Origin: Shimia sp. SK013
Lineage (GTDB): Bacteria; Pseudomonadota; Alphaproteobacteria; Rhodobacterales; Rhodobacteraceae
Reading direction: 5' to 3'
DNA: 64,000 bases
NCBI RefSeq assembly: GCF_001292625.1
Contig: NZ_LAJH01000012.1
Span: 248,001-312,000 of the forward strand
Part shown: positions 33,247 through 47,934 of the stretch, piece after piece
Numbering within the stretch: the stretch's first letter is position 1
Layout: the number at the start of each line of letters is the position of its first letter
Translations under genes and position numbers: made by a program
The notes under the pieces: generated by a model
The model's database searches: none
Seen by the model: the letters and a program-made list of their open reading frames with translations, nothing else
What the model was told of the DNA's origin: nothing

Positions 33247-33785
33247 CGTTTGAATTTGAGCAGAATGGGCCGGTGGATGCTAAGGTAATGGCGCGGGCGA
33301 TAAAGGGTTGCCCTAAGAAGCACGGCAGTCTCCGATCAAGAATCGTGAGTTTTGCGCTGGGATCATTCCTTGCAGCAGTCTTGGGTGTAGGTGGTATCGC
33401 GATTGCGATTGGTGTCGCTTTCAAGGTCGGTTATGGGCAAATTGCACGTGACATGCCTGTCGTTTTTGGCGGCTTTTTCTTGGCGCTCCTATTATGGAAA
33501 TTGGCGTTTGCGTATAATTTTCGTGTTCACGTCGGTGCCATATTGAAGTCGCCGATCTATTCTGGAAACACACGGTGTTCCTTCGGCAAAGAGGGTTTGT
33601 CGATGGCAACCGACAACGCCAAATGGGAGGTTAAATGGCCCGCTGTGACCAGTTTCAAGGCTACAGCGGACGGCTTTTTCTTCTACTCGGGCGCTTATGT
33701 TTATGTCCTGCCTTCAACAGCCTTTGGCAATGCGGATCGGGATACCTTTGTCGGCGCCATCAATGAGTGGAGAGCTGCCGCATGA
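33243..33785 (+). CDS. YcxB-like membrane protein in the Mo-cofactor operon
   Basis: A 180-residue protein with two transmembrane helices at about 35-60 and 70-90, then a beta-rich C-terminal part resembling the YcxB-like domain (Trp-x-x-Val-x-x-Phe, then Tyr-Val-Leu-Pro-x-x-Ala-Phe). GTG 33243 overlaps the fdhD stop and its own stop overlaps mobA, both by 4 nt, so it is translationally coupled on both sides. I know of no role for YcxB-like proteins in cofactor synthesis. Confidence 0.6.
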   Translation: MTFEFEQNGPVDAKVMARAIKGCPKKHGSLRSRIVSFALGSFLAAVLGVGGIAIAIGVAFKVGYGQIARDMPVVFGGFFLALLLWKLAFAYNFRVHVGAILKSPIYSGNTRCSFGKEGLSMATDNAKWEVKWPAVTSFKATADGFFFYSGAYVYVLPSTAFGNADRDTFVGAINEWRAAA

Positions 33786-34426
33786 AACAACCTCTCGGCG
33801 TGATACTTGCGGGCGGACAGGCCACGCGTTTGGGCGGAGGCGACAAGGGGCGCTTGATGCTCGGCGATCGCTCGATCTTGTCGCATGTGATTGAGCGGCT
33901 GGAGCCGCAAGTGGCGGGGCTGGCGCTTAATGCCAATGGCGATGCCACGCGATTTGACGATCTGGGTTTGCCGGTGATCGCAGATGATCTGGACGGGTTT
34001 GCGGGACCGCTTGCTGGTGTGCTGGCGGGTCTGGATTGGGCGGCGGAACAGGGCGGAGAAACCATCGTAACAGCTGCGGCGGACACACCGTTTTTTCCTT
34101 GTGATCTTGTGCCGCGTCTATTGATGGCAACAGACGGTATGGAGCATCGTCTGGCGTTGGCGGCGACGCCGCGTGGCGAAGGTGAGGCAACCAAATCCAT
34201 GTCCCGATCCGGCCTGATCCGGCACCCGACTTTTGGCCTCTGGCCGGTGGCATTGCGTCATGACTTGCGGGCGGCGCTTGACGGAGGCTTGCGCAAAGTG
34301 GTGCTGTGGACCGACCCGCATGACGGGCGATTGGCGGAGTTTCCTACCAGCCTTGGGAACCCGTTTTTTAATGTGAATACTGCCGAAGACCTCTCGGAGG
34401 CACGGCGCATGGTGGGGGCAGTATGA
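33782..34426 (+). CDS. mobA: Molybdenum cofactor guanylyltransferase
   Basis: A 214-residue nucleotidyltransferase that attaches GMP to Mo-molybdopterin, forming MGD. The N-terminal LAGGQATRLGGGDKG loop is the GTP-binding signature (LAGGxxxRMGGxDK) and Ala-Ala-Asp-Thr-Pro-Phe carries the metal-binding Asp. Start ATG 33782 overlaps the preceding stop, and its own stop overlaps mobB by 4 nt. Confidence 0.93.
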   Translation: MKQPLGVILAGGQATRLGGGDKGRLMLGDRSILSHVIERLEPQVAGLALNANGDATRFDDLGLPVIADDLDGFAGPLAGVLAGLDWAAEQGGETIVTAAADTPFFPCDLVPRLLMATDGMEHRLALAATPRGEGEATKSMSRSGLIRHPTFGLWPVALRHDLRAALDGGLRKVVLWTDPHDGRLAEFPTSLGNPFFNVNTAEDLSEARRMVGAV

Positions 34427-34944
34427 CTCAGAGAATTTACGGCGTGGTGGGCTGGAAGAACGCCGGCAAGACAGGGTTGATGGAGCGACTTGTGTCTGAG
34501 ATCACGGGTCGCGGATTTTCGGTTTCGACAGTGAAACATGCGCATCATACCTTTGACGTGGATCAGCCGGGCAAGGACAGCCACCGTCACCGCACAGCAG
34601 GCGCGCGCGAAGTTCTTTTGGCGTCAGGCGCACGCTGGGCATTGATGCACGAGCTTGCCAAAGAGGAGGAGCCGCCGCTGGAGTTGTTGCTGTCAAAACT
34701 GGCGCCGGTCGATTTGGTGCTGGTCGAAGGCTATAAGCGCGATGCGCACCCCAAAGTGGAGGCGTTTCGGGCTGAGACCGGCAACCCTTTGATTGCACCA
34801 GATGATCCAACCATTTGTGCCATCGCAGCGGATGCGCCGGTCGCGAGTGACCGAGTGGTGTTTGATTTGAATGACACATCGGTGATTGCCGATTTTGTGC
34901 TTTCAGAGGTGGGTTTGCCGCAGACCAAAGGTGAGGCCAGCTGA
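34423..34944 (+). CDS. mobB: Molybdopterin-guanine dinucleotide biosynthesis protein B
   Basis: A 173-residue P-loop GTPase-like protein with Walker A GWKNAGKTGL near 9-18, a Lys-His-Ala-His-His block near 43-47 and LVEGYK near 103-108. MobB assists MobA-dependent MGD formation but is not essential in E. coli. It is coupled to mobA by a 4-nt overlap, and moeA starts 1 nt after its stop. Confidence 0.93.
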   Translation: MTQRIYGVVGWKNAGKTGLMERLVSEITGRGFSVSTVKHAHHTFDVDQPGKDSHRHRTAGAREVLLASGARWALMHELAKEEEPPLELLLSKLAPVDLVLVEGYKRDAHPKVEAFRAETGNPLIAPDDPTICAIAADAPVASDRVVFDLNDTSVIADFVLSEVGLPQTKGEAS

Positions 34945-34945
34945 G

Positions 34946-36211
34946 ATGAACGACCCGCTTATGCCACCGCCGTTGACGGACGATTGTTTTGCGCTGCCTG
35001 CGGGCACCCATTGGACGCCGGTGGCTGAGGCGCATGCCATGCTAGAAGATCGTTTGGCTGTGGTGGTCGGGACAAAGACTGTTGCACTGGACGCCGCTTT
35101 GGATCGGGTGCTGGCGCAGGATGTCATCGCCCGACGGGCCAATCCGCCGGAAGCCAACTCTGCGGTGGATGGGTACGGGGTGCGCCATGCGGGCACGAAG
35201 GATGGACCGCAGACGATGGCGTTGATGACTGGGCGTTCGGCGGCAGGGGCGCCGTTTGAAGGCGTGCTGGCCGCTGGTCAGGCCGTGCGTATCCTGACGG
35301 GGGCGACAATACCGGAGGGCGTGGACACGGTGATCTTGCAAGAAGGCGTGACAACCGATGGTGCGCAGGTCGCGTTTCATGGTCCTCTCAAAAAGGGCGC
35401 TAACCTGCGGCAGGCTGGAGAAGATGTGGAAGCGGGCGATGTGATTTTGACCGAAGGGCGGCGGGTGACACCTGCGGATATGGCGCTGGCGGCAGCCACT
35501 GGGGTGTCGGACTTGCAGGTGCGAAACCGTCTTCGGGTCGCGGTGCTTTCCACGGGTGACGAGTTGGCCCAGCCGGGAGAGGACGCGCGGGCGGGCCAGA
35601 TTTATGATGCCAATCGGCCGATGTTACTGGCGATGATAAACCGGTTTGGCTTTGAGGCAGTAGATGCCGGGCGGGCGCCGGATGATCGGGCAGAGCTGAA
35701 ACGCATGATGGATCGTGCTGCGGAGACGTCGGACTTGATCCTCACGTCGGGCGGGGCCTCTGCTGGAGATGAAGACCATTTGTCGGCGCTGCTCAATGAA
35801 AGTGGTGCCATGACGTTGTGGCGACTTGCGATCAAACCGGGACGGCCGCTTGCGTTAGGGATGTGGCGCGGAAAACCGGTGTTTGGTCTGCCGGGCAATC
35901 CGGTGGCTGCTATGGTGTGCACCTTGATTTTTGCGCGACCGGCGATGGGGGCTTTGGCTGGTGAGGGCTGGCGTTTGCCGGAACCGATGATGGTGCCGGC
36001 CAATTTCACCAAAAGCAAAAAGCCGGGACGACGCGAGTACCTGCGCGCGCGTTTGCGCGATGGCAAAGCGGAGGCATTTGCGTCTGAAGGATCAGGCAGG
36101 ATTAGCGGTCTGAGCTGGGCCGAGGGTCTGGTCGCGCTGCCGGATGACGCTTGTGAAATAGCCCCCGGTACAGATGTCGCATTTTACAGCTACGCTGCAT
36201 TCGGGCTCTGA
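34946..36211 (+). CDS. moeA: Molybdopterin molybdenumtransferase
   Basis: A 421-residue MoeA, inserting molybdate into adenylylated molybdopterin. The four-domain order is intact: an N-terminal Pro-x-x-Asn-Ser-Ala-Val-Asp-Gly-Tyr segment, then Ile-Leu-Thr-Gly-Ala, then the MoCF-type domain with Ser-Thr-Gly-Asp-Glu-Leu and Leu-Thr-Ser-Gly-Gly-Ala-Ser, ending in a domain IV beta-barrel. It is the last gene of the fdhD-mobAB-moeA operon. No clear terminator follows in the 49-bp gap to the convergent cytochrome gene. Confidence 0.94.
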   Translation: MNDPLMPPPLTDDCFALPAGTHWTPVAEAHAMLEDRLAVVVGTKTVALDAALDRVLAQDVIARRANPPEANSAVDGYGVRHAGTKDGPQTMALMTGRSAAGAPFEGVLAAGQAVRILTGATIPEGVDTVILQEGVTTDGAQVAFHGPLKKGANLRQAGEDVEAGDVILTEGRRVTPADMALAAATGVSDLQVRNRLRVAVLSTGDELAQPGEDARAGQIYDANRPMLLAMINRFGFEAVDAGRAPDDRAELKRMMDRAAETSDLILTSGGASAGDEDHLSALLNESGAMTLWRLAIKPGRPLALGMWRGKPVFGLPGNPVAAMVCTLIFARPAMGALAGEGWRLPEPMMVPANFTKSKKPGRREYLRARLRDGKAEAFASEGSGRISGLSWAEGLVALPDDACEIAPGTDVAFYSYAAFGL

Positions 36212-36260: not shown

Positions 36261-38219
36261 TTAAAATTCTGCTGCCAGCGACAACAGACTTATATCATTG
36301 GGGTTGGACTTTAACGCTTGCTGCATGAGCTCTTGCGCAGCTTCCAGCCCTTGTGCCTGTGCCACCATCCGAATGAGGCTGTGCCAGGCTTGCGGTGTCT
36401 GTGGGTTGATGCGCACAGCTTCGCTCAAGGCGGAAATTGCCGCCGGAACGTTGCCCGCGACCATCGAAAATCCGCCGACTTGCAAGTGAGCTTCTGCGAA
36501 ATCCATCTGGTTGCGCAGGACGCCGCCAAGTTCCGCGTAGGCTTTGCCAACCTGCGCGCGAAGCCCTTCTGACATCCGCCCTGGTTGCTGGCTGAGTATT
36601 GCGCGCGCCGCGGCAATCCGTACCGCGCGCGTGTCATCGTTCAATCCGCGGATCAAATAAGGCTCCGAGATTACAGACGCGCGTTGGCGCAACGCCGAAA
36701 GCGCGGCGACGCGTACTTGGGGATCAGCGTCATTCATAAACGCACCCAGGTCGGAGACTTCGAGGCTAATGGCCCCATCGCGCAGGAGCCACAACGCGGT
36801 CGCACGCACGATGTCCGGCTGATCCAAGTCCTGAGCCAGCCCAAGTAAAAGCGGCGCGGCCGAGGTCGGACTCCGTCGCCCTTTGGCAAGAACCTCGCCA
36901 TAGTGCGGCTGTTGCCATTGTCCGTCAGGGAACCATTCTTGGATTTTATCGGCGGCCCATGTGGCAGCTTGATCCGTGTGGCAGGTTGTGCACGCGTTGG
37001 GTGCACCCAGCACGTCACTCAAATCTGGGCGGGGCACGCGAAAGCTGTGATCGCGCCGGGCGTCGATACCCATATAGACCTTGTCGGTCATGTGGCAGTT
37101 CACGCACATTGCTGCGTCACTGTTTTGCGAATGGCGGGTATGGGCCTCGGTGTCGTAATCGGCCAAGGGCAAGCTTGGGAAATCCGGATTGCCCGCTTCG
37201 GAATGGCATTGCGTGCACACAGCATTGCCATCCGCAACCGTGTCGGCCGCGTGGGGCGTATGGCAATTGGCGCAGGTTACGCCCTTTTGGTGCATCTTGG
37301 ATTGTAAGAACGAGCCATAGACATAGACCTCGTCCAATATCTGCCCGTCCGCGTGATAGAGCTCGGGACGCAACATAGCGAGGTTGTAGCTATCTGCAAA
37401 AGCCACTCCGGGCACAGGATTGCCGTCGCCAAAAGCCTCGCGTCGGGCGTGACATCCGGCGCATTGCGCCATTTGGCCTTCTGGATTGGACAGAACCTCG
37501 GCAAATCCCCAAAATTCCGGTCCGCTGACAGTTGGGTCTGCGGTTGTTTTGTTTGCAATTGCCACATGTGCCGATCCCGGGCCATGGCAAGCTTCGCATC
37601 CTACACCAATCTCGACCTGTCTTGAGGCATAGCTTCGGTTGCGGAAGTCGTAGTTTTTCTCAAATCCGGTGGCGTGGCACTCTGCGCAACGTGCATTCCA
37701 GTTCTTATAGGCACCGGACCAGTGAAACGCGTCCACAGGTGGCAAATCCTGATCCGGATAAAGGTGGTACCAGCGCCGCTGCTCCACATCCCAGACGATA
37801 TCAAAGCTCTGTAAAAAGCCGTCGCCTGTTTCAAGGATCAGATGCTCCAGCGGATGCACACCACCAACAGAGTGCACCTTGTAAACGGTTGTGGTGGCAT
37901 CGCTCTCTTGAACTGTGACGGTCAATCCGTCGGTGTCTTTTGTAAACTTTGCCTGCAGGCCGTTCGCGGAAAACATTTCGCCCTCAAAGGCGCCCACCAA
38001 AGTGTCCGGGCCCGCAAGCCGCCAGGCCTTTGCGTGATGGGAGCCTTGCCATGCGGCGTAGGCCTGTGTGTGGCAGTCAGCGCAGGCTTGGGACCCGATA
38101 TAGTCTGCTGTCCCATCCCCGCCCTGCTGCGCAATTGCGGGCACACTTGCCGACAAAAAGACGCCAAAGACCAAGGTAAAGATCCGGAGGGAAATGCTGT
38201 CACGTGGCCAGAAATTCAT
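36261..38219 (-). CDS. Octaheme c-type cytochrome with HEAT/TPR C-terminus
   Basis: A 652-residue periplasmic protein. A Sec signal is visible at about 13-30 (cleavage after Ala-Ile-Ala). Eight CxxCH heme-binding motifs begin at residues 46, 178, 208, 253, 316, 335, 372 and 410. Residues about 425-540 look like HEAT-type helical repeats, and about 560-652 like TPRs. The heme part resembles the cytochrome c554/multiheme superfamily, so it is probably an electron-transfer protein, or a catalytic one with protein-binding repeats. The preferred start is ATG 38219. It lies 157 bp downstream of batD on the same strand and ends the unusual sulfatase/MoxR block. Confidence 0.85.
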   Translation of the reverse strand: MNFWPRDSISLRIFTLVFGVFLSASVPAIAQQGGDGTADYIGSQACADCHTQAYAAWQGSHHAKAWRLAGPDTLVGAFEGEMFSANGLQAKFTKDTDGLTVTVQESDATTTVYKVHSVGGVHPLEHLILETGDGFLQSFDIVWDVEQRRWYHLYPDQDLPPVDAFHWSGAYKNWNARCAECHATGFEKNYDFRNRSYASRQVEIGVGCEACHGPGSAHVAIANKTTADPTVSGPEFWGFAEVLSNPEGQMAQCAGCHARREAFGDGNPVPGVAFADSYNLAMLRPELYHADGQILDEVYVYGSFLQSKMHQKGVTCANCHTPHAADTVADGNAVCTQCHSEAGNPDFPSLPLADYDTEAHTRHSQNSDAAMCVNCHMTDKVYMGIDARRDHSFRVPRPDLSDVLGAPNACTTCHTDQAATWAADKIQEWFPDGQWQQPHYGEVLAKGRRSPTSAAPLLLGLAQDLDQPDIVRATALWLLRDGAISLEVSDLGAFMNDADPQVRVAALSALRQRASVISEPYLIRGLNDDTRAVRIAAARAILSQQPGRMSEGLRAQVGKAYAELGGVLRNQMDFAEAHLQVGGFSMVAGNVPAAISALSEAVRINPQTPQAWHSLIRMVAQAQGLEAAQELMQQALKSNPNDISLLSLAAEF

Positions 38220-38376
38220 AAGGGCCCTTTCGGCCGGCACGCAGTGGTTTTTGGCAAAGCCAGTGCCTTAGCGCCGGAGATAAAATCAGTCACTCGCCGA
38301 CTATGCGACAGTATGGGAGGGACGCAAAGTCTGCATATCCACACAAGGCGAAAAATCTTTTAGCCATTGCATCTGG

Positions 38377-39627
38377 CTAGGTCGGATTAAGAGGCGGCAA
38401 AATGTTGGGATTGGACCGCGCCAATCTACTTTTACGGTCCACTTTGAACGCGTCGGAAAGCGCATCCCATGCCTCGGTTCCGTCTGGTTCTTTCCCATAA
38501 AAACCTTTCCCAACCGCCGCCAACGCGGTTTGCAAGCCAGACCCAGATTGACCGGGACAGCGGGCCTCCCAAAGAGGCAAGGCGCGGTAAACTTGTGAAA
38601 GATCATGGGCGCGGATCGCATCGGTCACCAATGAACTTGCATAAGCTTCGCTGTTGAACCAGCGGGCGCGACGCCGTTGCAATGCCGCAGTCACAGGCGG
38701 AACCACATACCGCTGAGACAGGCGCAGCGTTGCCGCCAAAATCGCCAGTATTGTGGCAACAACGACGATTTGACGTCGGCTGATCACGGGCTCTCTTGGT
38801 GCTGCGGGCGCATCAATCTCGACGGTTGCGCCATTCAATTGTGCCGTTTCGACTTTGTTGGTCTTGGTGTTGAACCACTGCACCGAGATTGCAGGGAGTT
38901 CCAGAGTGCCGCCAAATTGCGCGACATAGCTGGTGGTCTCAAGCCTCATGCCGGAAAGCACCCCGCGATCCTCACTTTCAGACACCGCAGCCTCTTTGGG
39001 GTAGGCCCGCGCCGCGTCAGTCTCGATTGGCGCAATCAGGGGTGGCAGGAAAAGCGCGGAACTACCTGTGATCTTGGCGGTGACGGTGCGTGTCAGGGCG
39101 TCACCTTCACCGAGCACCCCATCGTTTCCCTCAAGTTCTTGCGTCAGCGTGAGCCCCTGCGCCACGATCAGCGGATCCAATTGTTCTGCGCCGGGCGGGA
39201 CCGTTGCCTCAAAGACGATTGGCCCCAAAGGCACATCAATTGAAATCGGCGCGCGAGTTTCGGGGTCGGCATAGGTCACCCCCACTGATTTTTGCGTCAG
39301 GGAAAACCTGCCCGGTACCATCGGGTACAAGCGATAGGCACGGCTGACACCCGACCACGTTTCGCCCTCGATGGTTTCGCTTACCGGATTGCTGGCACGG
39401 CTCGGCAGTCGCACAATCAGGTTGGGAGTTTCCATCGACGGGAACTGGGGCGGTTGCGGGAGCCATGTGGGCACCAAAACCGTTACTCTCAAGACAATTG
39501 GCTGGCCAACAACCGGCGGTTCTTCAGGCAATGCTGCGCGCACGATCACCGGCGGTTGAGAAATTTCCTGTGCGCGGATTTCACCGCCGATCCCGAGCAT
39601 CAATAAGGCCAGCAGCACACGGATCAT
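38377..39627 (-). CDS. batD: BatD-like protein
   Basis: A 416-residue protein with a signal peptide (hydrophobic core 2-12, then Arg-Ala-Gln), a long beta-sandwich periplasmic part with the BatD/oxygen-tolerance pattern, one transmembrane helix at about 290-310 and a cytoplasmic tail. It is the usual third member of the Bat set. The start overlaps the preceding VWA-TPR gene by 4 nt (ATGA). Its contribution is unknown even in Bacteroides, where Bat proteins affect aerotolerance. Confidence 0.8.
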   Translation of the reverse strand: MIRVLLALLMLGIGGEIRAQEISQPPVIVRAALPEEPPVVGQPIVLRVTVLVPTWLPQPPQFPSMETPNLIVRLPSRASNPVSETIEGETWSGVSRAYRLYPMVPGRFSLTQKSVGVTYADPETRAPISIDVPLGPIVFEATVPPGAEQLDPLIVAQGLTLTQELEGNDGVLGEGDALTRTVTAKITGSSALFLPPLIAPIETDAARAYPKEAAVSESEDRGVLSGMRLETTSYVAQFGGTLELPAISVQWFNTKTNKVETAQLNGATVEIDAPAAPREPVISRRQIVVVATILAILAATLRLSQRYVVPPVTAALQRRRARWFNSEAYASSLVTDAIRAHDLSQVYRALPLWEARCPGQSGSGLQTALAAVGKGFYGKEPDGTEAWDALSDAFKVDRKSRLARSNPNILPPLNPT

Positions 39628-41168
39628 GGCTGATCCCTCGTGGCATTTTCCTGCACAAATCGGGCGCGCAGAAAGTCTCCCATATCTGTGTCCACAGAGC
39701 GCATCCACTGCTCGGCGGTTTGCATCGGCGGGGGTGTGTCTTCTTGCTCGGAAAAATCGGTGTCTGTCTCGGCGCCACGGTTGGCTTCATTGTCGAACAC
39801 AACATCGTCCGCGCCGACGCCTGTTTCCTCTCCGGTGTCCCCTGCTTCGCGCGCGGACTCGACATACTCCAGAACTGCGCGGCTGACTTGCAGGTTCCAT
39901 TCGGCCTCAGCGTAGTCTGGACGCAATGTCAAAGCCCTCTCATAGGCCGCAATCGCGGGCCGGTATTGGCGGTTTCGCATGCGTGCCAAACCCTCGGCAA
40001 ACGCGGCCTCCGGCGTGTCGATCCGCGCATAAAGGTCGGCAGCCTCCTCGTAGTCGCCCGATTTGAGCAGCGCATAGCCACGCCACATCGGGTGTTGAAA
40101 CCGCTTTGCCGCGTCGGAATAATTTTTGTCGCGCATGGCGATCATGCCGCGCTGATCCGGCGTGAAAAACCAATCAAGCACGTCTGCCCGCGCAGACGAG
40201 GGTGCGACGGTCCCACCCAACAGAAGGGCAACGACTGCCCAGCGCATCGTCCATCCGCGCCGGAACCAAATCAGCAACAGCGGCATCGCCAACCAGCCCA
40301 AGACCCATCCCCGGTCTTCCCATTCCAGACGCTCGTCTTCCAAAAGCGCAGCCCGGTACGCCGAGGCTGTGGCTCGCTCTATGGCTTTGATATCGGAGTC
40401 ATCCGCGCTCAGGGGCACAACTGTGGCGCCGGGGATTTGCGCAAGCGCGCCAGTCGCAGCGCCTTTGGGCGCTGCCACCAAAAAAATCACCGGCGCATCT
40501 CCGGTTTGCGCATCCGCTGTAAAGGCTGCGGCATCGTTTGCGTCCAGCGCATCCAAGACAAACAGGATCGCGCCGGGCGTCTGGCTGCTCTGCAAAGCAG
40601 TTTTCGCCAGTTTGAGCGCGTCAGTCGCGTTCTCCCCCGGCGTTGGCATGACCGCAGGCGACAAAGCCTCTAACATAACCCGAAAAACATTCGGATCTTC
40701 GGTCAGAGGCGCAACCTGATGTGCGGTTCCACCATAGGCAATCAACCCAGTGCGCGCGCCTGCGCGGGCTTCAACAAGGTCGAGAATTTTGAATTTTGCG
40801 CGTTCCAGGCGGTTAGGTGGCAGGTCCGGTGCCTCCATCGATCGGCTCACTTCCAGCACAACAACCATAGGTGCGGTCTTGGCCAGCAACGGATTTGGCA
40901 CACGGGTCCACGACGGTCCCGCCGCAGCCAGGCTAAGCAGGATCAGGCAGATAGCAACGCCGTCAATCGGCACAAAACGCCGGTCCTTACCAGCGCCAAC
41001 GGTGAGCGCACGCGCAAGATGCGGCGCCATACCCCGCGTGGGTTGATCTGGTTTCACCAATTGATGCCGAATGGCCCACCAGAGCAGCCCGATTGGCAGC
41101 AGCAGGCCCAAAAACGCAGGGCGCAGGAACCGAAAGGCGCTGACGGCATCCCAAAACACATCCATCAT
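39624..41168 (-). CDS. BatB-type VWA protein with TPR (BatB/C-like)
   Basis: A 514-residue membrane protein: an N-terminal helix pair, a VWA domain at about 95-275, a membrane segment near 290-320, then TPRs at about 345-440 and an acidic tail. It resembles BatB fused to BatC, an arrangement known in several phyla. The MIDAS signature, usually DxSxS, reads Glu106-Val-Ser-Arg-Ser, so metal binding may be altered. Its start overlaps the batA stop by 4 nt and its end overlaps batD by 4 nt. Confidence 0.83.
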   Translation of the reverse strand: MMDVFWDAVSAFRFLRPAFLGLLLPIGLLWWAIRHQLVKPDQPTRGMAPHLARALTVGAGKDRRFVPIDGVAICLILLSLAAAGPSWTRVPNPLLAKTAPMVVVLEVSRSMEAPDLPPNRLERAKFKILDLVEARAGARTGLIAYGGTAHQVAPLTEDPNVFRVMLEALSPAVMPTPGENATDALKLAKTALQSSQTPGAILFVLDALDANDAAAFTADAQTGDAPVIFLVAAPKGAATGALAQIPGATVVPLSADDSDIKAIERATASAYRAALLEDERLEWEDRGWVLGWLAMPLLLIWFRRGWTMRWAVVALLLGGTVAPSSARADVLDWFFTPDQRGMIAMRDKNYSDAAKRFQHPMWRGYALLKSGDYEEAADLYARIDTPEAAFAEGLARMRNRQYRPAIAAYERALTLRPDYAEAEWNLQVSRAVLEYVESAREAGDTGEETGVGADDVVFDNEANRGAETDTDFSEQEDTPPPMQTAEQWMRSVDTDMGDFLRARFVQENATRDQP

Positions 41169-42151
41169 GCTTTGGCCCTCCGCAAATCTGTCAGGTGTAA
41201 ACCCAGCAGCGTCACCATGGCCAAAATAGCCGCGCAGCCAAACGCGATCCATGCCAGTGGGCGTTTGGGCTGAAAGCTGAGGGTTTCCGTCATCCGGGGA
41301 TTGAGACGGTCGATCTCGTCATAGATATCCTGCAGACCATCGCGGCCAGAGGCAAAGTAAAACGCGCCGCCGGTGCGACGCGCAATGTCTTCCAAAGCTT
41401 GCAAATCAACCTTGTCATCGCCACTGCCTGATGGATCACCAACTCCGACTGTGAAGATTTTTACGCCTCTGTCGGCGGCAATTTCAGCCGCGTTCACAGG
41501 CGACATGCGGCTTGAGGTATCCGCGCCGTCAGACAACAAAACCATCAGTCTCTGGTCCACCTCAGAGGTTTCAAAAGTGCGGATTGCGAGGCCAATTGCA
41601 TCGCCAATTGCCGTGTGAGGGCCCGCCATGCCAACCGTGGTCGCGTCAAGCAAATCGCGCACCACCGCAAGGTCTTCGGTAAAGGGGGTTTGTACAAACG
41701 CGCGGGTCCCAAACACAACGAGTGCCACTCTGTCGCCTGCGCGGGCTTCAATGAATTCGCCAACGACATCTTTGACGACCGCAAGGCGTTGTTGCGGTTC
41801 CCCATTGGTGTCTTTCATATCGCGCGCATCCATCGATCCGGAGATATCAACCGCGATCACAAGATCCCGTGCGGCTTTTTCAATTGTGGACAACTGACCC
41901 AGCTGCTCGGGTCGTGCCAATCCCAGCACAAGCAGCATCCAGACAAGCGTTGCAGCGACAATTTGCACGCGCTTGCGCGCCAGGATCGATGCCCCCGCCT
42001 TGGCTTGTACGCCCGCCGCCTTGGTCAGCTGCCGGAAAAACGGGATGCGGATCGCTTTGCTTTGTTCCCGATGCGGTGGCGCGAATTTCCAGATTAGCCA
42101 GGGCAATGGCAAAAGCAAAATCGCCCAGGGAAACGCCAGCGTGTAGGTCAT
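41165..42151 (-). CDS. batA: BatA-type VWA membrane protein
   Basis: A 328-residue protein with a TM helix near 8-22, a second near 62-78, a VWA domain at about 95-280 with canonical MIDAS Asp102-Ile-Ser-Gly-Ser plus downstream Thr and LSDGAD, and a C-terminal TM helix. VWA proteins of this set are clients or partners of the MoxR ATPase. ATGA overlaps join it to DUF4381 upstream and to the VWA-TPR gene downstream. Confidence 0.87.
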   Translation of the reverse strand: MTYTLAFPWAILLLPLPWLIWKFAPPHREQSKAIRIPFFRQLTKAAGVQAKAGASILARKRVQIVAATLVWMLLVLGLARPEQLGQLSTIEKAARDLVIAVDISGSMDARDMKDTNGEPQQRLAVVKDVVGEFIEARAGDRVALVVFGTRAFVQTPFTEDLAVVRDLLDATTVGMAGPHTAIGDAIGLAIRTFETSEVDQRLMVLLSDGADTSSRMSPVNAAEIAADRGVKIFTVGVGDPSGSGDDKVDLQALEDIARRTGGAFYFASGRDGLQDIYDEIDRLNPRMTETLSFQPKRPLAWIAFGCAAILAMVTLLGLHLTDLRRAKA

Positions 42152-42630
42152 TGCATCGACCCTGCCGTATGCGTCTTCAGCCATACGCGGCATTGCGCCT
42201 TCAGTTCGGGATTTTCGCGTGAGTTTTGGTGATAGGGGCCGGCGACAAGCGCCTCCGCCGCCAGGCCCGAAAAGGGTGCGTCAGGACAGTTTGAATTTAA
42301 AAACTGCACCCAGTCCTGCCCGACCAAAGAGGCAACTTTCCGACGAGGGAACGCCACCAAAGCCGCGCGGCGTATTATTCTTGCCATTGTGGCAGGGTCT
42401 GCTGCAACCGAGTGTAATTCGGCGAGCGCTTCGCGGCGATAAGCAGTAGCCCGCCGACGTCGGACCAACACCACACACCCCCAGGAACATGCCATCACGG
42501 TCGCGATGGCCAGCCAGATCCACCCTTGGGTTTCCGGCATCATTGAAATCGGCTCGGGTTCAGGTACCGGCTTGAGCAGGTTGAGCAGGTCGACAAGCCC
42601 AAGCCCGTCGGTGTCAGGAGCATCCGCCAT
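42148..42630 (-). CDS. DUF4381 domain-containing protein
   Basis: A 160-residue protein with a short N-terminus (Leu-Val-Asp-Leu-Leu-Asn-Leu-Leu), one TM helix at about 35-55, a basic stretch, then a helical cytoplasmic domain. DUF4381 occurs almost only in MoxR-DUF58-VWA loci, between DUF58 and BatA, as here. ATG 42630 overlaps the DUF58 stop by 1 nt (TGATG). The molecular role is unknown. Confidence 0.78.
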   Translation of the reverse strand: MADAPDTDGLGLVDLLNLLKPVPEPEPISMMPETQGWIWLAIATVMACSWGCVVLVRRRRATAYRREALAELHSVAADPATMARIIRRAALVAFPRRKVASLVGQDWVQFLNSNCPDAPFSGLAAEALVAGPYHQNSRENPELKAQCRVWLKTHTAGSMQ

Positions 42631-43574
42631 CAGCGCGCGCCACCTTTGAGGCCCAACAGTTCCCGCAATTGCGGCACCGTGTCGCGTGATGTGGTCAACG
42701 GCAGCACCGGAATGCGGTATTTTCCAGCCCACCCAATCGATCTGGCGACGCGCCCTCGCGTAAACGACCCAATACGCTCGGCGCGGTCACCCTCTTGAAG
42801 GTTCAGATCCGCCTGCAATTGTCCGTCCGAAACCACAATTCGAAGGTCGTCGGGCAATCGGCTCTCTGTGGGGTCCGTGACTGGAAACAGCATCACATCG
42901 TTGTGCGCCGCCATACGACGCACCAGATTTTCTGTTTTCTCGTCGGCTTCGGAAAAATCAGAGAAAATCAGGATAAGATTGCCAGTGGTCGCAATGCGCG
43001 CAGCCGCTTCGAGCGGTTGATTGAGTGGCATGGACTGGGTCACAATCCGGTCCGCTCGCAGCGCGCAATTGGCATCCCCAATAGCTGACACAAACCGGTT
43101 CAACGCTTTTTCAGAGGCTTTGGGGCGCAATTCCGCGACGACCTCGTCGGAAAACACGATGCCTCCGACCCTATCGCCTTGCGCCCGGATCCGGAATGCA
43201 GCCAAGGTTGCAGCCTCTGCTGCGGTTACCGATTTCATGTTGTGCTGGCTGCCATAGAACATGCTCATGCGCTGATCGACCAGCAACAAGGTCGGCCGGT
43301 CCCGTTCTTCGGTATAAACCCGCACATATGGGGTGCCTGTGCGCGCCGTGACTTTCCAGTCAATTGTGCGTGTGTCATCCCCGATTTGGTAATTGCGCAG
43401 CTCTTCGAAATTCAGGCCCCGTCCGCGCAGTCGCGATGAGTGCCGCCCGTTCAATAAAGACCGGACCGGTTGGCGTGGCAACAGCGACAAAGCCCGCGCT
43501 GGACCCGAAAGACGACGCAGGTGGGCGTGATCGGCGTGTATCCTGGGGTCCAAATCTTGCGTTTTCTCAGCCAT
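42630..43574 (-). CDS. DUF58 domain-containing protein
   Basis: A 314-residue soluble protein. The DUF58 signature is clear: Arg-Gly-x-Gly-Leu-Asn-Phe-Glu-Glu-Leu-Arg-x-Tyr, then Asp-Asp-x-Arg-x-Ile-Asp-Trp, then a VWA-like core with Asp-Phe-Ser. It is a conserved partner of MoxR ATPases. ATG 43574 is preferred over the upstream start at 43610, which would run into moxR. It starts 10 nt past the moxR stop. Confidence 0.88.
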   Translation of the reverse strand: MAEKTQDLDPRIHADHAHLRRLSGPARALSLLPRQPVRSLLNGRHSSRLRGRGLNFEELRNYQIGDDTRTIDWKVTARTGTPYVRVYTEERDRPTLLLVDQRMSMFYGSQHNMKSVTAAEAATLAAFRIRAQGDRVGGIVFSDEVVAELRPKASEKALNRFVSAIGDANCALRADRIVTQSMPLNQPLEAAARIATTGNLILIFSDFSEADEKTENLVRRMAAHNDVMLFPVTDPTESRLPDDLRIVVSDGQLQADLNLQEGDRAERIGSFTRGRVARSIGWAGKYRIPVLPLTTSRDTVPQLRELLGLKGGAR

Positions 43575-43584
43575 GCGGACCGCC

Positions 43585-44562
43585 TCAGGGCAACGCGACT
43601 TGCGCCGCAATTTCGTCGATTACCTGATCGACAGTCACGCCATCACCTTGCGCTTCGAACGACAACGCTATCCGATGCCGGAACACATCATGCAAGATCG
43701 CGCGCACATCTACCGGATCGACGTAGTCCCGGCTTTGCAGCCATGCATGCGCGCGGGAGCATTTGTCCAAGGCCAGAGACGCCCGCGGACTGGCGCCAAC
43801 TTCAATCCACCGGGCAAGATCATCCGACAGCGCAGCCGGTGTTCGCGTCGCCTGCACGAGATCGGCGATGTAGCGATCCATTGCGTCAGACACGTGAATT
43901 TTCCCGATCTCGACCCGCGCAGCAAACACCGTGTCCTGCGCAATTGGTTCGGCCCGCTCCGCTCCGACGGTGCGGTGCGCCTTTTGCTCTTCGCTCCGGA
44001 CCAGCCGGATCACGTTCACCTCTTCCTCAACAGACGGATAAAGCACTTGAACGTGCATCAAGAAGCGGTCCATCTGTGCCTCGGGCAAGGGATACGTCCC
44101 TTCTTGCTCGATCGGGTTTTGTGTGGCCATCACGGTAAAAAGTGGCGGCATTTTATGGGTGGTACCGGCAACTGTGACCTGTCGCTCTTCCATCGCCTCA
44201 AGAAGGGCGGCTTGTACTTTGGCAGGCGCGCGGTTGATCTCATCTGCCAGCACTACGTTTGCAAAAATGGGGCCCGCCTCAAAGCGGAACTCGGCGCCCT
44301 CGGACGTTTGGTGATACACCTCTGTTCCGGTCACATCCGCAGGCAACATGTCGGGCGTAAACTGGATGCGGGAAAACTCGGCCTCAAGATTGTTGGACAA
44401 GGCTTTGACCGCCCGTGTTTTGGCAAGCCCCGGCAAACCTTCAATCAGCAGGTTGCCATTCGCCAGCAAACCAATGATCAACCGCTCGATCACATCGCGT
44501 TGGCCAATAATGCTTTCGCCCATGCGCGTGCGCAATGTCGCGATCTGCTCGAGTGGGGACAT
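43585..44562 (-). CDS. MoxR-family AAA+ ATPase
   Basis: A 325-residue AAA+ ATPase with Walker A Gly-Leu-Pro-Gly-Leu-Ala-Lys-Thr at 42-49, Walker B VVLADEIN at 103-110, sensor 1 in ATQNPIEQEGTYPLPEAQMDRF, and a C-terminal lid domain with Gly-Ala-Ser-Pro-Arg. MoxR proteins act with VWA partners as chaperones in enzyme maturation or envelope stress. It begins the MoxR-DUF58-DUF4381-BatA-BatB-BatD run and lies 26 nt downstream of the phosphatase gene. Confidence 0.93.
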   Translation of the reverse strand: MSPLEQIATLRTRMGESIIGQRDVIERLIIGLLANGNLLIEGLPGLAKTRAVKALSNNLEAEFSRIQFTPDMLPADVTGTEVYHQTSEGAEFRFEAGPIFANVVLADEINRAPAKVQAALLEAMEERQVTVAGTTHKMPPLFTVMATQNPIEQEGTYPLPEAQMDRFLMHVQVLYPSVEEEVNVIRLVRSEEQKAHRTVGAERAEPIAQDTVFAARVEIGKIHVSDAMDRYIADLVQATRTPAALSDDLARWIEVGASPRASLALDKCSRAHAWLQSRDYVDPVDVRAILHDVFRHRIALSFEAQGDGVTVDQVIDEIAAQVALP

Positions 44563-44588
44563 GCGGGTACTCCTGCTGTTGTGCGGAT

Positions 44589-46280
44589 TTAGGGAAAGAC
44601 TTCGGCCAGTGGCGCGCCAAATGCACCCGACGGCATTTTTGTGCCAAGATAGGTGGCAATAGTGGCTGCCACGTCCACAGTTTCCACCCGCCGCGCGACA
44701 CGGGCGGGCGAGATGCCAGGGCCTGCCACAATGATCGGTACATGTGTGTCATACGACCATGGTGACCCGTGCGCGCTTGCCACAGTCAGACCGTCAAAAT
44801 CGGCAATGAACCAGTGGGGCTCAAAGACAATATAGATGTCGCCGGACCTCTCCGCATGAAAGTTCGCGCGCACAGCCTGCGAGATAACATCGTTGTTCAA
44901 TTTGGAGTCGCGCAACCGCCAACTCGGAATGGCCCGTGCGACCCCTGGCAACAGCGCCAGCTCTTTGGCCAATTCGTCGGCCACGGTGTCAAGCTCAAGC
45001 CCCTGTTTGTTGATTTCCTTGCGATCCAGATAAACGTAGGGGTTCGAAAAATTCCGCACCAGCCCACCGGTGCTGCCTAGTTTGACTCGCAACCGCACGG
45101 TGCCGGGCTGCATGTCGGTGCGGTCAAAATCAAAGGTATCAGCCATTATGCCGTGTTCGGCCAGATAAGCGGGATGATCCGGCGCGCCGTGATCAGCGGA
45201 CAGCACGACGAGCGTGTGTTCCAACCCCACAGAGGCGTCCACATGGTCTAGAAAATCCGCCAAGGTGTCGTCCAGCCTGCGAATGTTGTCTTCGGCCTCA
45301 AGCGAGGAGGGACCAAAAATGTGGCCGACGTAATCGGTGGAGCTGAAACTGACCGACAGGTAGTCGGTGACGTCATCTTGCCCGATGCTTTCCGCATTTA
45401 TCAGCGTCTTGGCGAAATCGCCGGTTAGGGAATCCCCTGCGGGGCTGAGTGTTAGGAGTGTGGTGAAATATTTGCCGTCAGCAGGTCCGAAGTCGTGCGG
45501 GAAAACGCGACCATAGCCGGGGAAATCCGTCTCCCACGGTTGATCGTCCCGCTCACCAAACAGATAGGAATCGCGCGCGTCGCGCAGTGTCCACCACGTG
45601 TTTGCAAAGGCGCCGACTTTGCCGCTGTCGTTCCAATCCTTCACCCACTGGGGATAGTCGTCGCGGTAAAACGTCGAGGTGACAAACCGACCTTCGGCTT
45701 TGGAAAACCAATAGGCCTGTCCGCTGTGGCCCGCCATCGCGATGGCGCCGCGATCTTTGACGGAAACGCCAAAAACCTTGGCCTTGGGGCCATAAAACAT
45801 CTGAATTTCGTCTGCGATCGTGCTGACCAGAATATTGCCGGGAGAACGCCCGTCAGTGGTCGCCGCGCGTTGCGTCGGGTCAATCTCGCTGCCCGCGTCG
45901 ATGCCGGCCGCCCCCACCAGAGGATAATCGGGGTCCTGAACGTTGTAAAACTGACTGCCGGTTTCGCGGTCATACCAAAGGTTGGCAACCATACCATGCA
46001 TCGCCGGATCGGCGCCGGTTGAAAGCGTGGTGTGACCCACGATGGTCTCGTTGTTGGCGTGGCGATGGTGGGCGTTCACGTAGGTCACGCCAGAGGCACG
46101 CAGACGGTTGAAACCACCGTCGCCCAATTCGGAGCCGTAGCGTTCGATCAGGTCACCGCGAAGTTGGTCCACCGTGATCTGTAAAACAAGTTTGGGGGGC
46201 GTCTGCTGTGCAAATGAGGGCTGAGGCAAAAACAATCCAGCACAGATGAAAGTGGTCAAAAGCAATTTTGACATAACCAT
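44589..46280 (-). CDS. PafA-like alkaline phosphatase/phosphodiesterase family protein
   Basis: A 563-residue periplasmic protein with a Sec signal (hydrophobic core at about 5-18, then Ser-Phe-Ala-Gln). The alkaline-phosphatase superfamily core is seen: metal Asp38, nucleophile Thr79 in Asn-Glu-Thr-Ile-Val-Gly-His, a Ser-Thr-Asp-Tyr-Val-Gly-His metal block, and Ser-Ala-Asp-His-Gly. This layout matches PafA-type calcium/zinc phosphomonoesterases more than ordinary PhoA. Phosphodiester substrates are possible. ATG 46280 has AGGA 9 nt upstream. It follows a terminator hairpin after the sulfatase gene. Confidence 0.83.
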   Translation of the reverse strand: MVMSKLLLTTFICAGLFLPQPSFAQQTPPKLVLQITVDQLRGDLIERYGSELGDGGFNRLRASGVTYVNAHHRHANNETIVGHTTLSTGADPAMHGMVANLWYDRETGSQFYNVQDPDYPLVGAAGIDAGSEIDPTQRAATTDGRSPGNILVSTIADEIQMFYGPKAKVFGVSVKDRGAIAMAGHSGQAYWFSKAEGRFVTSTFYRDDYPQWVKDWNDSGKVGAFANTWWTLRDARDSYLFGERDDQPWETDFPGYGRVFPHDFGPADGKYFTTLLTLSPAGDSLTGDFAKTLINAESIGQDDVTDYLSVSFSSTDYVGHIFGPSSLEAEDNIRRLDDTLADFLDHVDASVGLEHTLVVLSADHGAPDHPAYLAEHGIMADTFDFDRTDMQPGTVRLRVKLGSTGGLVRNFSNPYVYLDRKEINKQGLELDTVADELAKELALLPGVARAIPSWRLRDSKLNNDVISQAVRANFHAERSGDIYIVFEPHWFIADFDGLTVASAHGSPWSYDTHVPIIVAGPGISPARVARRVETVDVAATIATYLGTKMPSGAFGAPLAEVFP

Positions 46281-46301
46281 TACAAAAGGTCCTGTTAACA
46301 T

Positions 46302-46331
46302 AAAAAATGCGGCCCCAAGTTGGGGCCGCAT
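46302..46331 (-). terminator. Intrinsic terminator between sulfatase and phosphatase genes
   Basis: Read on the minus strand, ATGCGGCCCC and GGGGCCGCAT form a perfect 10-bp stem with a 5-nt loop (arms at 46322-46331 and 46307-46316), followed by a run of six T. It lies 13 nt past the sulfatase stop and only about 22 nt before the phosphatase start, so it probably separates or attenuates the two genes. Confidence 0.85.
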
Positions 46332-46344
46332 CTAGGAGATTGGA

Positions 46345-47934
46345 TCAGTCGCCAACCGCTTGGGTCATTTGATCCATGACCTGTTCAAGCGTGAAGCTCG
46401 CCGCCTTTTGGCGCGGTGGGAATTCCTGGAACGTTGCCAGGAATTGCGCCACATATTGCTGCGCGGGAACCATCAGGAACACCCTGTCGATCAACCAATC
46501 GTAGTAGGTATTGGAGGTGCGATAAGCGCGCTCATAAGGGTCGCGACGAAGGTGGAAAATCAGTGGAACACGCAGTTCGGTCCAAGGTTCAGCCCAAGCA
46601 CGCAACGTGGTGTATTGGCGCTGCTCAAGGAAGATCATCTTCCAGTCCTGATAGCGAAGGGCAGTCAGATCACCGTCATCCGAGAAATAGAATATCTCGT
46701 CACGCGGGCCTGCGTCTTCCCCACCGGTCAAATGTGGAAGGAAGTTGTAGCCATCCAAATGGACTTTGTATTCGCGCCCAATCGCTTGAACACCGCCTTC
46801 TTTCAGCTGCGCCTTTATGTCTGGGTTACCTGCAGCAGCAAGATACGTCGGCAGCCAATCCATGTGGTGCATGATTTCATTGGAAACCGCGCCTGCTTCG
46901 ATTTTGCCGGGCCAACGCACCATTGATGGCACGCGCCAGCCGCCTTCCCAGTTGGTGTTCTTTTCACCAAAGAACGGTGTCGCCGCCGCGTCAGGCCAGG
47001 TGTTGTAATGCGGTCCGTTGTCAGTGGAGTAGTGCACGATTGTATTGTCAGCGATGCCAAGTTCATCCAGCAAATCGAGAAGCTGTCCGACATGCATGTC
47101 GTGTTCGATCATGCCGGCCGTATACTCATCCACTTTCTTGCCGACAATTTCATTGGCTTTCGCGCGCATTTCGTCTTTCACGTGGGTGCGAAAGTGCATA
47201 CGCGTTCCGCTCCACCAGACATAAAACGGCTTGCCCTGCTCATTGGCGCGTTTGATGAAATCAATGGTCGCGGCGACGGTTTCTTCGTCAACGGTTTCCA
47301 TGCGTTTCTTGGTCAGCGGGCCGGTGTCTTCGATGGAGCCATCAGCAGATGATTTGATCACGCCTCGCGGACCAAATGCTTCGCGGAACGTCCGGCCATC
47401 CGCAAGAACAGCATCGCCGGGATAATCTTCATTCTCGGGCTCTTCCTCGGCATTCAGGTGATAGAGGTTGCCGAAAAATTCGTCAAAACCGTGATTTGTC
47501 GGCAAATGCGAATCCTGATCGCCCAAATGGTTCTTGCCAAACTGAGCGGTCATATACCCTTCTGCTTTCAGAAGGCCGGCAATGGTCGGATCTTCTTCTT
47601 GCATACCTAGATCCGCGCCGGGCAGACCCACCTTGGACAAGCCGGTTCGAAACACAGACTGGCCCATGATGTAGGAGGACCGGCCGGCGGTGCACGATTG
47701 TTCACCATAATAATCGGTGAAAATCATACCCTCGTTGGCAACTCGGTCGATATTAGGCGTGCGGTAACCCATCATACCCATCGTGTAGGCAGAAATGTTG
47801 GATCTACCGACGTCATCTCCCCATATGACAAGTATGTTCGGACTGTCTTGCGCCGATAGGCTGGTAGCTGCTGACGTCAGAGCTGCAGTTGCCACTGCCA
47901 GCCCCCTCAGCGCCATGGAAGTGGAAAAAGCCAT
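46345..47934 (-). CDS. Type I arylsulfatase family protein, periplasmic
   Basis: A 529-residue formylglycine-dependent sulfatase. It has a signal peptide at about 1-28 (ending Ser-Ala-Gln), metal-binding Asp40-Asp41, and the modification motif Cys-Thr-Ala-Gly-Arg at 81-85, with Ala where most sulfatases have Pro. Later motifs include Gly-Lys-Asn-His and Ser-Thr-Asp-Asn-Gly. The substrate is not predictable; marine polysaccharide sulfates or other organosulfates are options. Active enzyme needs a formylglycine-generating enzyme, which is not in this window. ATG 47934 has GAGGAG upstream and is preferred over GTG 47964. Confidence 0.9.
   Translation of the reverse strand: MAFSTSMALRGLAVATAALTSAATSLSAQDSPNILVIWGDDVGRSNISAYTMGMMGYRTPNIDRVANEGMIFTDYYGEQSCTAGRSSYIMGQSVFRTGLSKVGLPGADLGMQEEDPTIAGLLKAEGYMTAQFGKNHLGDQDSHLPTNHGFDEFFGNLYHLNAEEEPENEDYPGDAVLADGRTFREAFGPRGVIKSSADGSIEDTGPLTKKRMETVDEETVAATIDFIKRANEQGKPFYVWWSGTRMHFRTHVKDEMRAKANEIVGKKVDEYTAGMIEHDMHVGQLLDLLDELGIADNTIVHYSTDNGPHYNTWPDAAATPFFGEKNTNWEGGWRVPSMVRWPGKIEAGAVSNEIMHHMDWLPTYLAAAGNPDIKAQLKEGGVQAIGREYKVHLDGYNFLPHLTGGEDAGPRDEIFYFSDDGDLTALRYQDWKMIFLEQRQYTTLRAWAEPWTELRVPLIFHLRRDPYERAYRTSNTYYDWLIDRVFLMVPAQQYVAQFLATFQEFPPRQKAASFTLEQVMDQMTQAVGD

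What the first reader, a model, noticed from the sequence alone, without database searches (positions are those of the whole stretch)
36261..47934. Nine-gene block linking a sulfatase, a PafA-like phosphatase, a full MoxR-Bat set and an octaheme cytochrome
Seen: nine same-strand genes. ATGA/TGATG overlaps run from DUF58 through batD. The sulfatase and phosphatase lie upstream and the octaheme cytochrome lies 157 bp downstream of batD. Known: MoxR-DUF58-VWA loci are linked to enzyme maturation or aerotolerance. Inference: here the chaperone set may mature or insert one of the periplasmic hydrolases or the cytochrome, forming an organo-sulfate/phosphate scavenging and electron-transfer unit. I know of no described system with this composition.
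Basis: partly seen in the sequence, partly recalled or inferred. Interest (0 to 1): 0.75.

Follow-up and report, generated by a model that had tools for sequence, protein, structure and literature searches.

The report
Cytochrome that may activate sulfatases
A marine bacterium pairs a sulfate-removing enzyme with an unusual eight-heme protein that, in related genomes, sits where the known sulfatase-activating enzymes otherwise sit, so it may be a long-sought third way of switching sulfatases on.

Summary
The nine genes are real and lie where reported, with two corrections: a strong intrinsic terminator follows the sulfatase, so a single nine-gene transcript is unlikely, and the phosphatase probably starts inside its longest ORF. 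The constant pair is the sulfatase (SULF, CTAGR nucleophile) and the octaheme-HEAT-TPR cytochrome (CYT): among 195 genomes of the order SULF occurs in 32, CYT in 31, both in 31. The one SULF genome without CYT has a true formylglycine-generating enzyme (FGE) beside SULF. Among 398 phylum genomes, 15 of 19 SULF genomes lacking CYT have FGE (11) or the radical-SAM maturase anSME (4) beside SULF, against 1 of 27 with CYT. None of 200 scanned loci holds two of the three. MoxR-Bat and a secreted phosphatase accompany SULF with any of them. In the loci read, SULF beside CYT or FGE is Cys-type, beside anSME Ser-type; on the SULF tree the FGE label needs 8 changes. Best explanation: CYT is a periplasmic, heme-based sulfatase maturase, a candidate for an unidentified third formylglycine system; MoxR-Bat is accessory. 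Biochemistry is untested, and some genomes do not fit neatly (CYT without a detected sulfatase; Cys-type sulfatases in genomes lacking any known maturase).

The parts
46345..47934 (-). SULF: exported S1-type sulfatase, nucleophile motif SCTAGR (Cys to be turned into formylglycine)
   Evidence: PF00884 165 bits; best solved chain 7aj0 arylsulfatase E 3e-53; motif and signal-like N-terminus read from the translation
46305..46333 (-). intrinsic terminator after SULF
44589..46280 (-). PHOS: secreted PafA-like phosphatase
   Evidence: NCBIfam PafA 458.6 bits, below cut-off; PDB 5tj3 E 9e-90 with aligned Thr, N and K-D-R residues (their catalytic roles are recalled)
43585..44562 (-). MoxR AAA+ ATPase
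   Evidence: PF07726 212.8 bits
42630..43574 (-). DUF58 protein
   Evidence: PF01882 137 bits
42148..42630 (-). DUF4381 protein
   Evidence: PF14316 105 bits
41165..42151 (-). BatA-like VWA protein
   Evidence: PF00092; NCBIfam BatA_Lepto E 2e-43, below cut-off
39624..41168 (-). BatB/BatC-like VWA + TPR protein
   Evidence: PF13519 and TPR
38377..39627 (-). BatD-like protein
   Evidence: PF13584 20.2 bits, just under its cut-off; position at the end of the MoxR-Bat run
36261..38219 (-). CYT: exported octaheme c-type cytochrome with C-terminal HEAT and TPR repeats; proposed sulfatase maturase
   Evidence: 8 CXXCH; PF13435, HEAT and TPR matches; co-occurrence and slot exchange

Best explanation
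The cytochrome (CYT) is a periplasmic sulfatase maturase. The sulfatase is exported with its active-site cysteine unmodified. CYT, whose TPR/HEAT tail could hold the client, oxidises this cysteine in CTAGR (or CxPxR) motifs to formylglycine, and its heme chain takes the electrons. It thus does outside the cytoplasm what FGE (O2, copper) and anSME (radical SAM) do inside. MoxR-Bat is an accessory machine of the sulfatase module (perhaps folding or metal loading) and is not essential for it. The phosphatase is a second secreted hydrolase of the same module. Shown: gene identities, co-occurrence, slot exchange, the constant Cys. Inferred: that CYT acts on the sulfatase, the chemistry, the place, the role of MoxR-Bat.
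For: (1) Order sample: SULF 32, CYT 31, both 31 of 195 genomes (Fisher 3e-35, not corrected for kinship). (2) The one exception, G048, has a true FGE beside SULF, and its SULF starts MADKPNIL, with no signal peptide. (3) Phylum sample: of 19 SULF genomes without CYT, 11 have FGE and 4 anSME beside SULF; of 27 with CYT, 1 (G336) has (p 1e-7, not corrected for kinship). Five FGE and three anSME loci keep SULF with MoxR-Bat. (4) Of 200 scanned loci, 84 have SULF+CYT (77 with different SULF C-termini), 11 SULF+FGE, 4 SULF+anSME, none two of the three. MoxR-Bat and HAD show no such exclusion. (5) Nucleophile: Cys in 81 of 81 SULF in CYT loci and 11 of 11 in FGE loci, Ser in 4 of 4 in anSME loci. 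(6) Careful SULF tree: the FGE label needs 8 changes, all forced by well-supported branches. (7) Of the 31 order CYT genomes, anSME is over its cut-off in 0 and FGE over 200 bits in 10; 11 have no PF03781 match at E 0.001. In four of these 11 (G112, G127, G155, G194) I read 19 further sulfatase ORFs: all Cys-type, 18 with a signal-like N-terminus. G451, of another class, has no PF03781 match either and 12 flagged Cys-type sulfatase ORFs. (8) CYT lies beside other Cys-type sulfatase families too, e.g. in Methylosinus trichosporium OB3b, where the two genes overlap by 4 bp.
Against: No biochemistry. G577 has CYT but no sulfatase match to P0003; 8 of 35 phylum CYT genomes lack strong SULF. Four SULF genomes (G520, G540, G578, G316) show none of the three maturases beside SULF and could not be searched whole. 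G336 has CYT yet FGE beside its interrupted SULF. Own genome: two more Cys-type enzymes (CAPSR, CGGSR) without visible signal peptide, and no FGE or anSME, so another route exists or they work unmodified; L072 of G155 is a third such case. G109 and G136 have exported Cys-type sulfatases with no strong CYT, no anSME match and no FGE over 200 bits. anSME was not searched genome-wide in the 32 phylum CYT genomes. The tool scored at most 3 candidates per genome (6 or 7), so a CYT could have been missed in a genome counted as lacking it. Many CYT loci have no SULF within the fetched stretch (68 of 200; 35 of 65 named loci). Labels on the SULF tree are hardly clustered (FGE 8 changes against 9.3 in shuffles), which fits frequent exchange but also noisy labels.
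Confidence: 0.6

Rival explanations
1. CYT is needed for sulfatase activation but does not make formylglycine itself: it is the electron acceptor or a helper of a still unknown periplasmic maturase, or it keeps the active-site cysteine in the right redox state.
For: Same exclusion pattern. All eight CXXCH motifs plus six further His are invariant in 40 sequences, which would also suit plain electron transfer.
Against: No other gene was found constantly with the pair in the neighbour clusters; in L024 and L025 CYT and SULF stand as a divergent pair without MoxR-Bat or HAD in the stretch.
Confidence: 0.2
2. First-reader type: MoxR-Bat is the maturase (for instance it loads Ca2+ into the sulfatase, as proposed for Mxa proteins and methanol dehydrogenase; recalled), and CYT and phosphatase belong to an organosulfate/phosphate scavenging and respiration unit.
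For: MoxR-Bat is found near SULF with every maturase type; all 20 BatB genomes of the order have SULF and CYT.
Against: 11 of 31 order genomes keep SULF+CYT without strong BatB; a scavenging or respiration role does not explain why CYT is replaced by FGE or anSME in the same cluster.
Confidence: 0.12
3. Coincidence of lifestyle: large marine genomes collect sulfatases and multiheme cytochromes; SULF and CYT travel together in gene clusters without direct dependence, and FGE or anSME is simply kept where present.
For: The sampled genomes are related; sulfatase-CYT clusters occur on plasmids; 10 of 31 CYT genomes of the order also have an FGE over 200 bits.
Against: SULF with Bat and CYT are kept together even when CYT lies elsewhere (G103, G114, G175, G229). 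Exclusion at the same place, with 8 label changes on the SULF tree, is not expected.
Confidence: 0.08

Closest known systems
FGE / SUMF1 (formylglycine-generating enzyme, PF03781)
   Same: Stands beside the same sulfatase family, five times in the same MoxR-Bat cluster, with the same Cys-type motif
   Different: CYT has no PF03781 match; FGE is a copper oxidase of the cytoplasm or ER (recalled), CYT an exported multiheme cytochrome
anSME (anaerobic sulfatase maturase, TIGR03942)
   Same: Stands beside SULF in the same cluster (L219, L222, L226) and beside SULF in L224
   Different: Radical SAM protein; in the four loci read with Ser-type sulfatases only; CYT has no radical-SAM match
Third sulfatase maturation system postulated in E. 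coli (Benjdia et al. 2007; seen only as cited in PMC6189696 and PMC8379841, passages)
   Same: Would serve organisms that modify sulfatases without a known maturase
   Different: Inferred from E. coli mutants and unidentified; no search for CYT in E. coli was made here, and if CYT is exported it acts in another compartment than cytoplasmic substrates
Bat (aerotolerance) operon with MoxR
   Same: MoxR-DUF58-DUF4381-BatA-BatB-BatD order
   Different: Here beside a sulfatase, a phosphatase and a maturase; the function of Bat was unknown in PMC3557215 (passages)
Cytochrome c554 / octaheme cytochromes (PF13435 and kin)
   Same: CXXCH-rich c-type cytochrome
   Different: HEAT+TPR tail; matches to known families and solved chains cover short stretches

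Membership tests
FGE (PF03781) | PF03781 domain in CYT | tested here: not met
   No PF03781 among the 11 Pfam families matched by CYT
anSME (TIGR03942) | radical SAM/SPASM domains in CYT | tested here: not met
   No such match among the Pfam/NCBIfam hits of CYT
sulfatase maturase (functional class) | converts Cys or Ser of the sulfatase motif to formylglycine | not testable with these tools
   needs mass spectrometry
sulfatase maturase (functional class) | genomic pairing with S1 sulfatases, alternating with FGE/anSME | tested here: met
   exceptions told in the report
S1 formylglycine sulfatase | PF00884 above cut-off and Cys in C-x-(P/A)-x-R | tested here: met
multiheme c-type cytochrome (c554-like) | several CXXCH motifs, PF13435 above cut-off, export signal | tested here: met
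   8 CXXCH; PF13435 49.5 against 20.8 bits; signal judged by eye only
PafA alkaline phosphatase | NCBIfam equivalog score of 650 | tested here: not met
   458.6 bits; active-site residues aligned with 5tj3: may work like PafA, not filed as PafA
MoxR-Bat operon | MoxR, DUF58, VWA BatA, VWA/TPR BatB, BatD in a row | tested here: met
   BatD is under its cut-off and rests on position

The most novel reading that the evidence does not exclude
The octaheme-HEAT-TPR cytochrome is itself a heme-dependent formylglycine-generating enzyme working in the periplasm: a third class of sulfatase maturase, able to use respiratory electron acceptors in place of O2 or SAM, and widespread in the phylum (35 of 398 sampled genomes; plasmid matches also in Pseudoalteromonas and Vibrio).
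Probability: 0.5. Interest if true: 0.95.

Novelty: categorically new. Interest (0 to 1): 0.85.

Why it matters
Formylglycine is thought to be essential for S1 sulfatases. PMC8379841 (passages) names FGE and anSME as the two main identified makers and says that a third, still unidentified one is suspected; PMC6189696 (passages) calls the E. coli machinery elusive. Bacteria with many Cys-type, mostly exported sulfatases and neither FGE nor anSME have no explained maturation; this gives a concrete candidate gene with natural controls (the same sulfatase family with FGE, anSME or CYT). If right, it adds a heme-based protein modification acting after export, explains part of marine sulfated-compound turnover, and could give a new way to make active sulfatases and aldehyde-tagged proteins.

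Tried and rejected
Operon of nine genes: thought unlikely because of the terminator after the sulfatase. MoxR-Bat as core partner: rejected because strong BatB is absent in 11 of 31 SULF+CYT genomes. Idea that the conserved slot beside SULF in the window's genus held FGE: the gene there (c7, c4) is a secreted HAD phosphatase; FGE is absent from the own genome. FGE absence alone as proof: not accepted, because the own genome has two further Cys-type enzymes without FGE. Clean split 'FGE means cytoplasmic, CYT means exported': only a tendency; several FGE-linked SULF have Tat-like or Sec-like N-termini, judged by eye and hydrophobicity only. Structure: the AlphaFold model of CYT has mean pLDDT 65.8 with much of the heme part under 50; the 50 best Foldseek matches are almost all TPR, HEAT-like or other repeat proteins at weak E-values, so no conclusion on the active site. 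SULF/CYT mirror-tree correlation r 0.56 over 76 loci: weak, not used. One search used three queries in a wrong frame (PHOS, DUF58, BatB); repeated correctly. One search printed nothing (pattern too strict), redone. Literature: 10 searches of open-licence PMC papers; I saw listings and, for four papers (PMC6189696, PMC8379841, PMC3557215, PMC5066984), passages. No listed title or abstract links a multiheme cytochrome to sulfatase maturation; subscription journals and preprints are not held.
Full report
What is there. The window lies in a 4.05 Mb, 28-contig genome. A genome of the same genus has a contig whose length (262,066) equals that of a named Shimia sagamensis contig, so the genus is probably Shimia in the wide sense (inference). 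The nine minus-strand genes are confirmed. The sulfatase carries SCTAGR; the phosphatase is PafA-like, with Thr, N and K-D-R residues aligned to PafA (roles recalled), but under the NCBIfam cut-off; the cytochrome has 8 CXXCH motifs followed by HEAT and TPR repeats. A strong terminator follows the sulfatase.

Conservation in the order. In 195 genomes of the order (a drawn sample, 87 genera), CYT at E below 1e-60 occurs in 31, BatB at that level in 20, SULF at E below 1e-100 in 32. All 31 CYT genomes have SULF; all 20 BatB genomes have both, although in G103, G114, G175 and G229 CYT lies away from BatB. So SULF and CYT are the constant pair and MoxR-Bat is optional. Twelve further genomes with weaker CYT matches were not counted: five match in the heme half (the two read, L257 and L260, have 7 CXXCH motifs), seven only in the TPR part; one of the latter is G048.

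The clue. The only SULF genome without CYT, G048, has a PF03781 protein directly beside SULF. It is a true FGE: the human enzyme's chain 1y1e matches at E 9e-71, with the two cysteines of GGSYLCAPNYC aligned. Its SULF begins MADKPNILVLWGDD and has no signal peptide. PF03781 (E up to 0.001) is missing from the own genome and in all from 11 of the 31 CYT genomes, and present above 200 bits in 10 of 31. anSME reaches its cut-off in 2 of 195 genomes, neither with CYT. In four of the 11 genomes (G112, G127, G155, G194) I read 19 further sulfatase ORFs: all have a Cys-type motif and 18 a signal-like N-terminus by eye.

The test in the phylum. In 398 genomes of the phylum, CYT (profile of 15 sequences, E below 1e-20) occurs in 35, SULF (E below 1e-100) in 46, both in 27; the tool scored at most 3 candidates per genome in these two calls. 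I fetched the SULF surroundings of all 19 SULF genomes without CYT (18, G048) and of at least one SULF in each of the 27 with CYT (and the window). Without CYT: 11 FGE, 4 anSME, 4 with none of the three (G520, G540, G578, G316). The four anSMEs score 483-513 bits against a cut-off of 349. With CYT: one genome, G336, has FGE beside an interrupted SULF; in the other 26 neither was found in the stretches read (some stretches are short contigs), nor in the own genome as a whole. Fisher p is 1e-7, without correction for kinship. Of the 32 CYT genomes outside the order, 31 have some PF03781 match but only 3 (G336, G332, G543) one above 200 bits; weaker ones may be other members of that domain family, and 5 lie between 179 and 200 bits.

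Same slot, different enzyme. In L209, L220, L221, L223 and L225 FGE, and in L219, L222 and L226 anSME, lies in a cluster that otherwise has SULF and MoxR-Bat, and in all but L223 also the secreted HAD phosphatase. Over 200 fetched loci, chosen mostly by CYT or SULF matches and partly overlapping, 84 have SULF with CYT (77 with different SULF C-termini), 11 with FGE, 4 with anSME, 33 with none, 68 have CYT without SULF in the stretch, and none has two of the three. MoxR-Bat and HAD do not show this exclusion: Bat is near 51 of 84, 5 of 11 and 3 of 4, HAD near 46 of 84, 6 of 11 and 3 of 4. The nucleophile is Cys in all 81 readable SULF of CYT loci and all 11 of FGE loci, Ser in all 4 of anSME loci; in loci with none, 34 Cys and one unreadable fragment. 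On a careful tree of 52 SULF rows (reduced at 80% identity among CYT rows; four long or odd rows left out) the FGE label needs 8 changes, all forced by well-supported branches, against 9.3 in shuffles; the three anSME rows form one clade (quick tree with all 56 rows: 11 changes among the three labels).

Beyond this sulfatase family. G451, of another class of the phylum, has 18 sulfatase matches and no PF03781 match; the 12 sulfatase ORFs flagged in the stretches read are all Cys-type with signal-like N-termini by eye, and no radical-SAM-like ORF was flagged by a simple motif scan of those stretches. G573 is similar, with only a 36-bit PF03781 fragment. CYT also sits beside other Cys-type sulfatases: in Methylosinus trichosporium OB3b an arylsulfatase overlaps CYT by 4 bp and an aryl-sulfate sulfotransferase is near; in Rhodobacteraceae SC52 the order is arylsulfatase, HAD hydrolase, CYT; on Sinorhizobium meliloti pSymA a CTPGR sulfatase frame ends about 1.1 kb upstream of the CYT frame. 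One of the five plasmid loci read, Qingshengfaniella, has no sulfatase near CYT.

How it may work. In 40 CYTs from the window's class and other classes all eight CXXCH motifs are invariant, with six further invariant His (62, 218, 323, 360, 363, 391 of the window CYT) and, between the hemes, invariant D291, G292, E297, Q306 and M309 (first alignment). Fewer invariant distal His than hemes leaves room for one or two hemes without two His ligands, which could be catalytic (inference). The TPR/HEAT tail is the most confident part of the model and is of a kind that often binds proteins (recalled). I therefore propose that CYT binds the exported sulfatase and oxidises its cysteine by two electrons; the thioaldehyde hydrolyses to formylglycine, as in the anSME scheme (recalled). 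Membership: CYT is neither an FGE nor an anSME (both tested, not met); the claim is that it works like them.

What speaks against it is listed under the best explanation; most important are G577 (CYT without a detected sulfatase), the four SULF genomes without any adjacent maturase, and the own genome's two further Cys-type enzymes that seem cytoplasmic and have no known maturase either. The Ensifer choline sulfatase made in E. coli was unmodified yet active (PMC6189696, passages), so some such enzymes may not need formylglycine.

Verdict. Observation confirmed with two corrections; interpretation partly supported; the stronger finding is the exchange of a cytochrome with FGE and anSME.

Noticed in passing
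L257 7150-9108 (-), L260 6883-8835 (-): Distant CYT relatives of about 650 aa with 7 CXXCH motifs; no sulfatase-motif ORF was flagged beside them.
   Followed up: partly
L009-L015 and L017-L019, beside CYT: In 10 loci of the window's genus a Mrp/Mnh-type Na+/H+ antiporter operon follows CYT (clusters c9-c12); not found beside CYT in the window.
   Followed up: no
L009 2893-3894 (+) and 26 other loci: Secreted HAD-type phosphatase often taking the place of the PafA-like phosphatase; matches solved chain 4ovy at E 2e-95, named only a haloacid dehalogenase domain hydrolase.
   Followed up: partly
L002 1477-3024 (+), L003 1405-3141 (+) (own genome): Two further Cys-type sulfatase-superfamily enzymes (CAPSR, CGGSR) without visible signal peptide in a genome with no FGE or anSME match.
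   Followed up: partly
L087, L098, L088: A small exported sulfatase family (435-469 aa frames, CxPTR) in G109, G136, G172 without strong CYT; G109 has no FGE or anSME match either, so its maturation is unexplained.
   Followed up: no
L208, L209, L212, L213, L214: SULF copies from genomes counted as lacking CYT (three beside FGE, two with no maturase found nearby) with twin-arginine-like N-termini, as if folded before export.
   Followed up: no
window 33767-36211 (+): Molybdenum cofactor genes (MobA-like, MobB, MoeA) converge on the 3' end of CYT.
   Followed up: no
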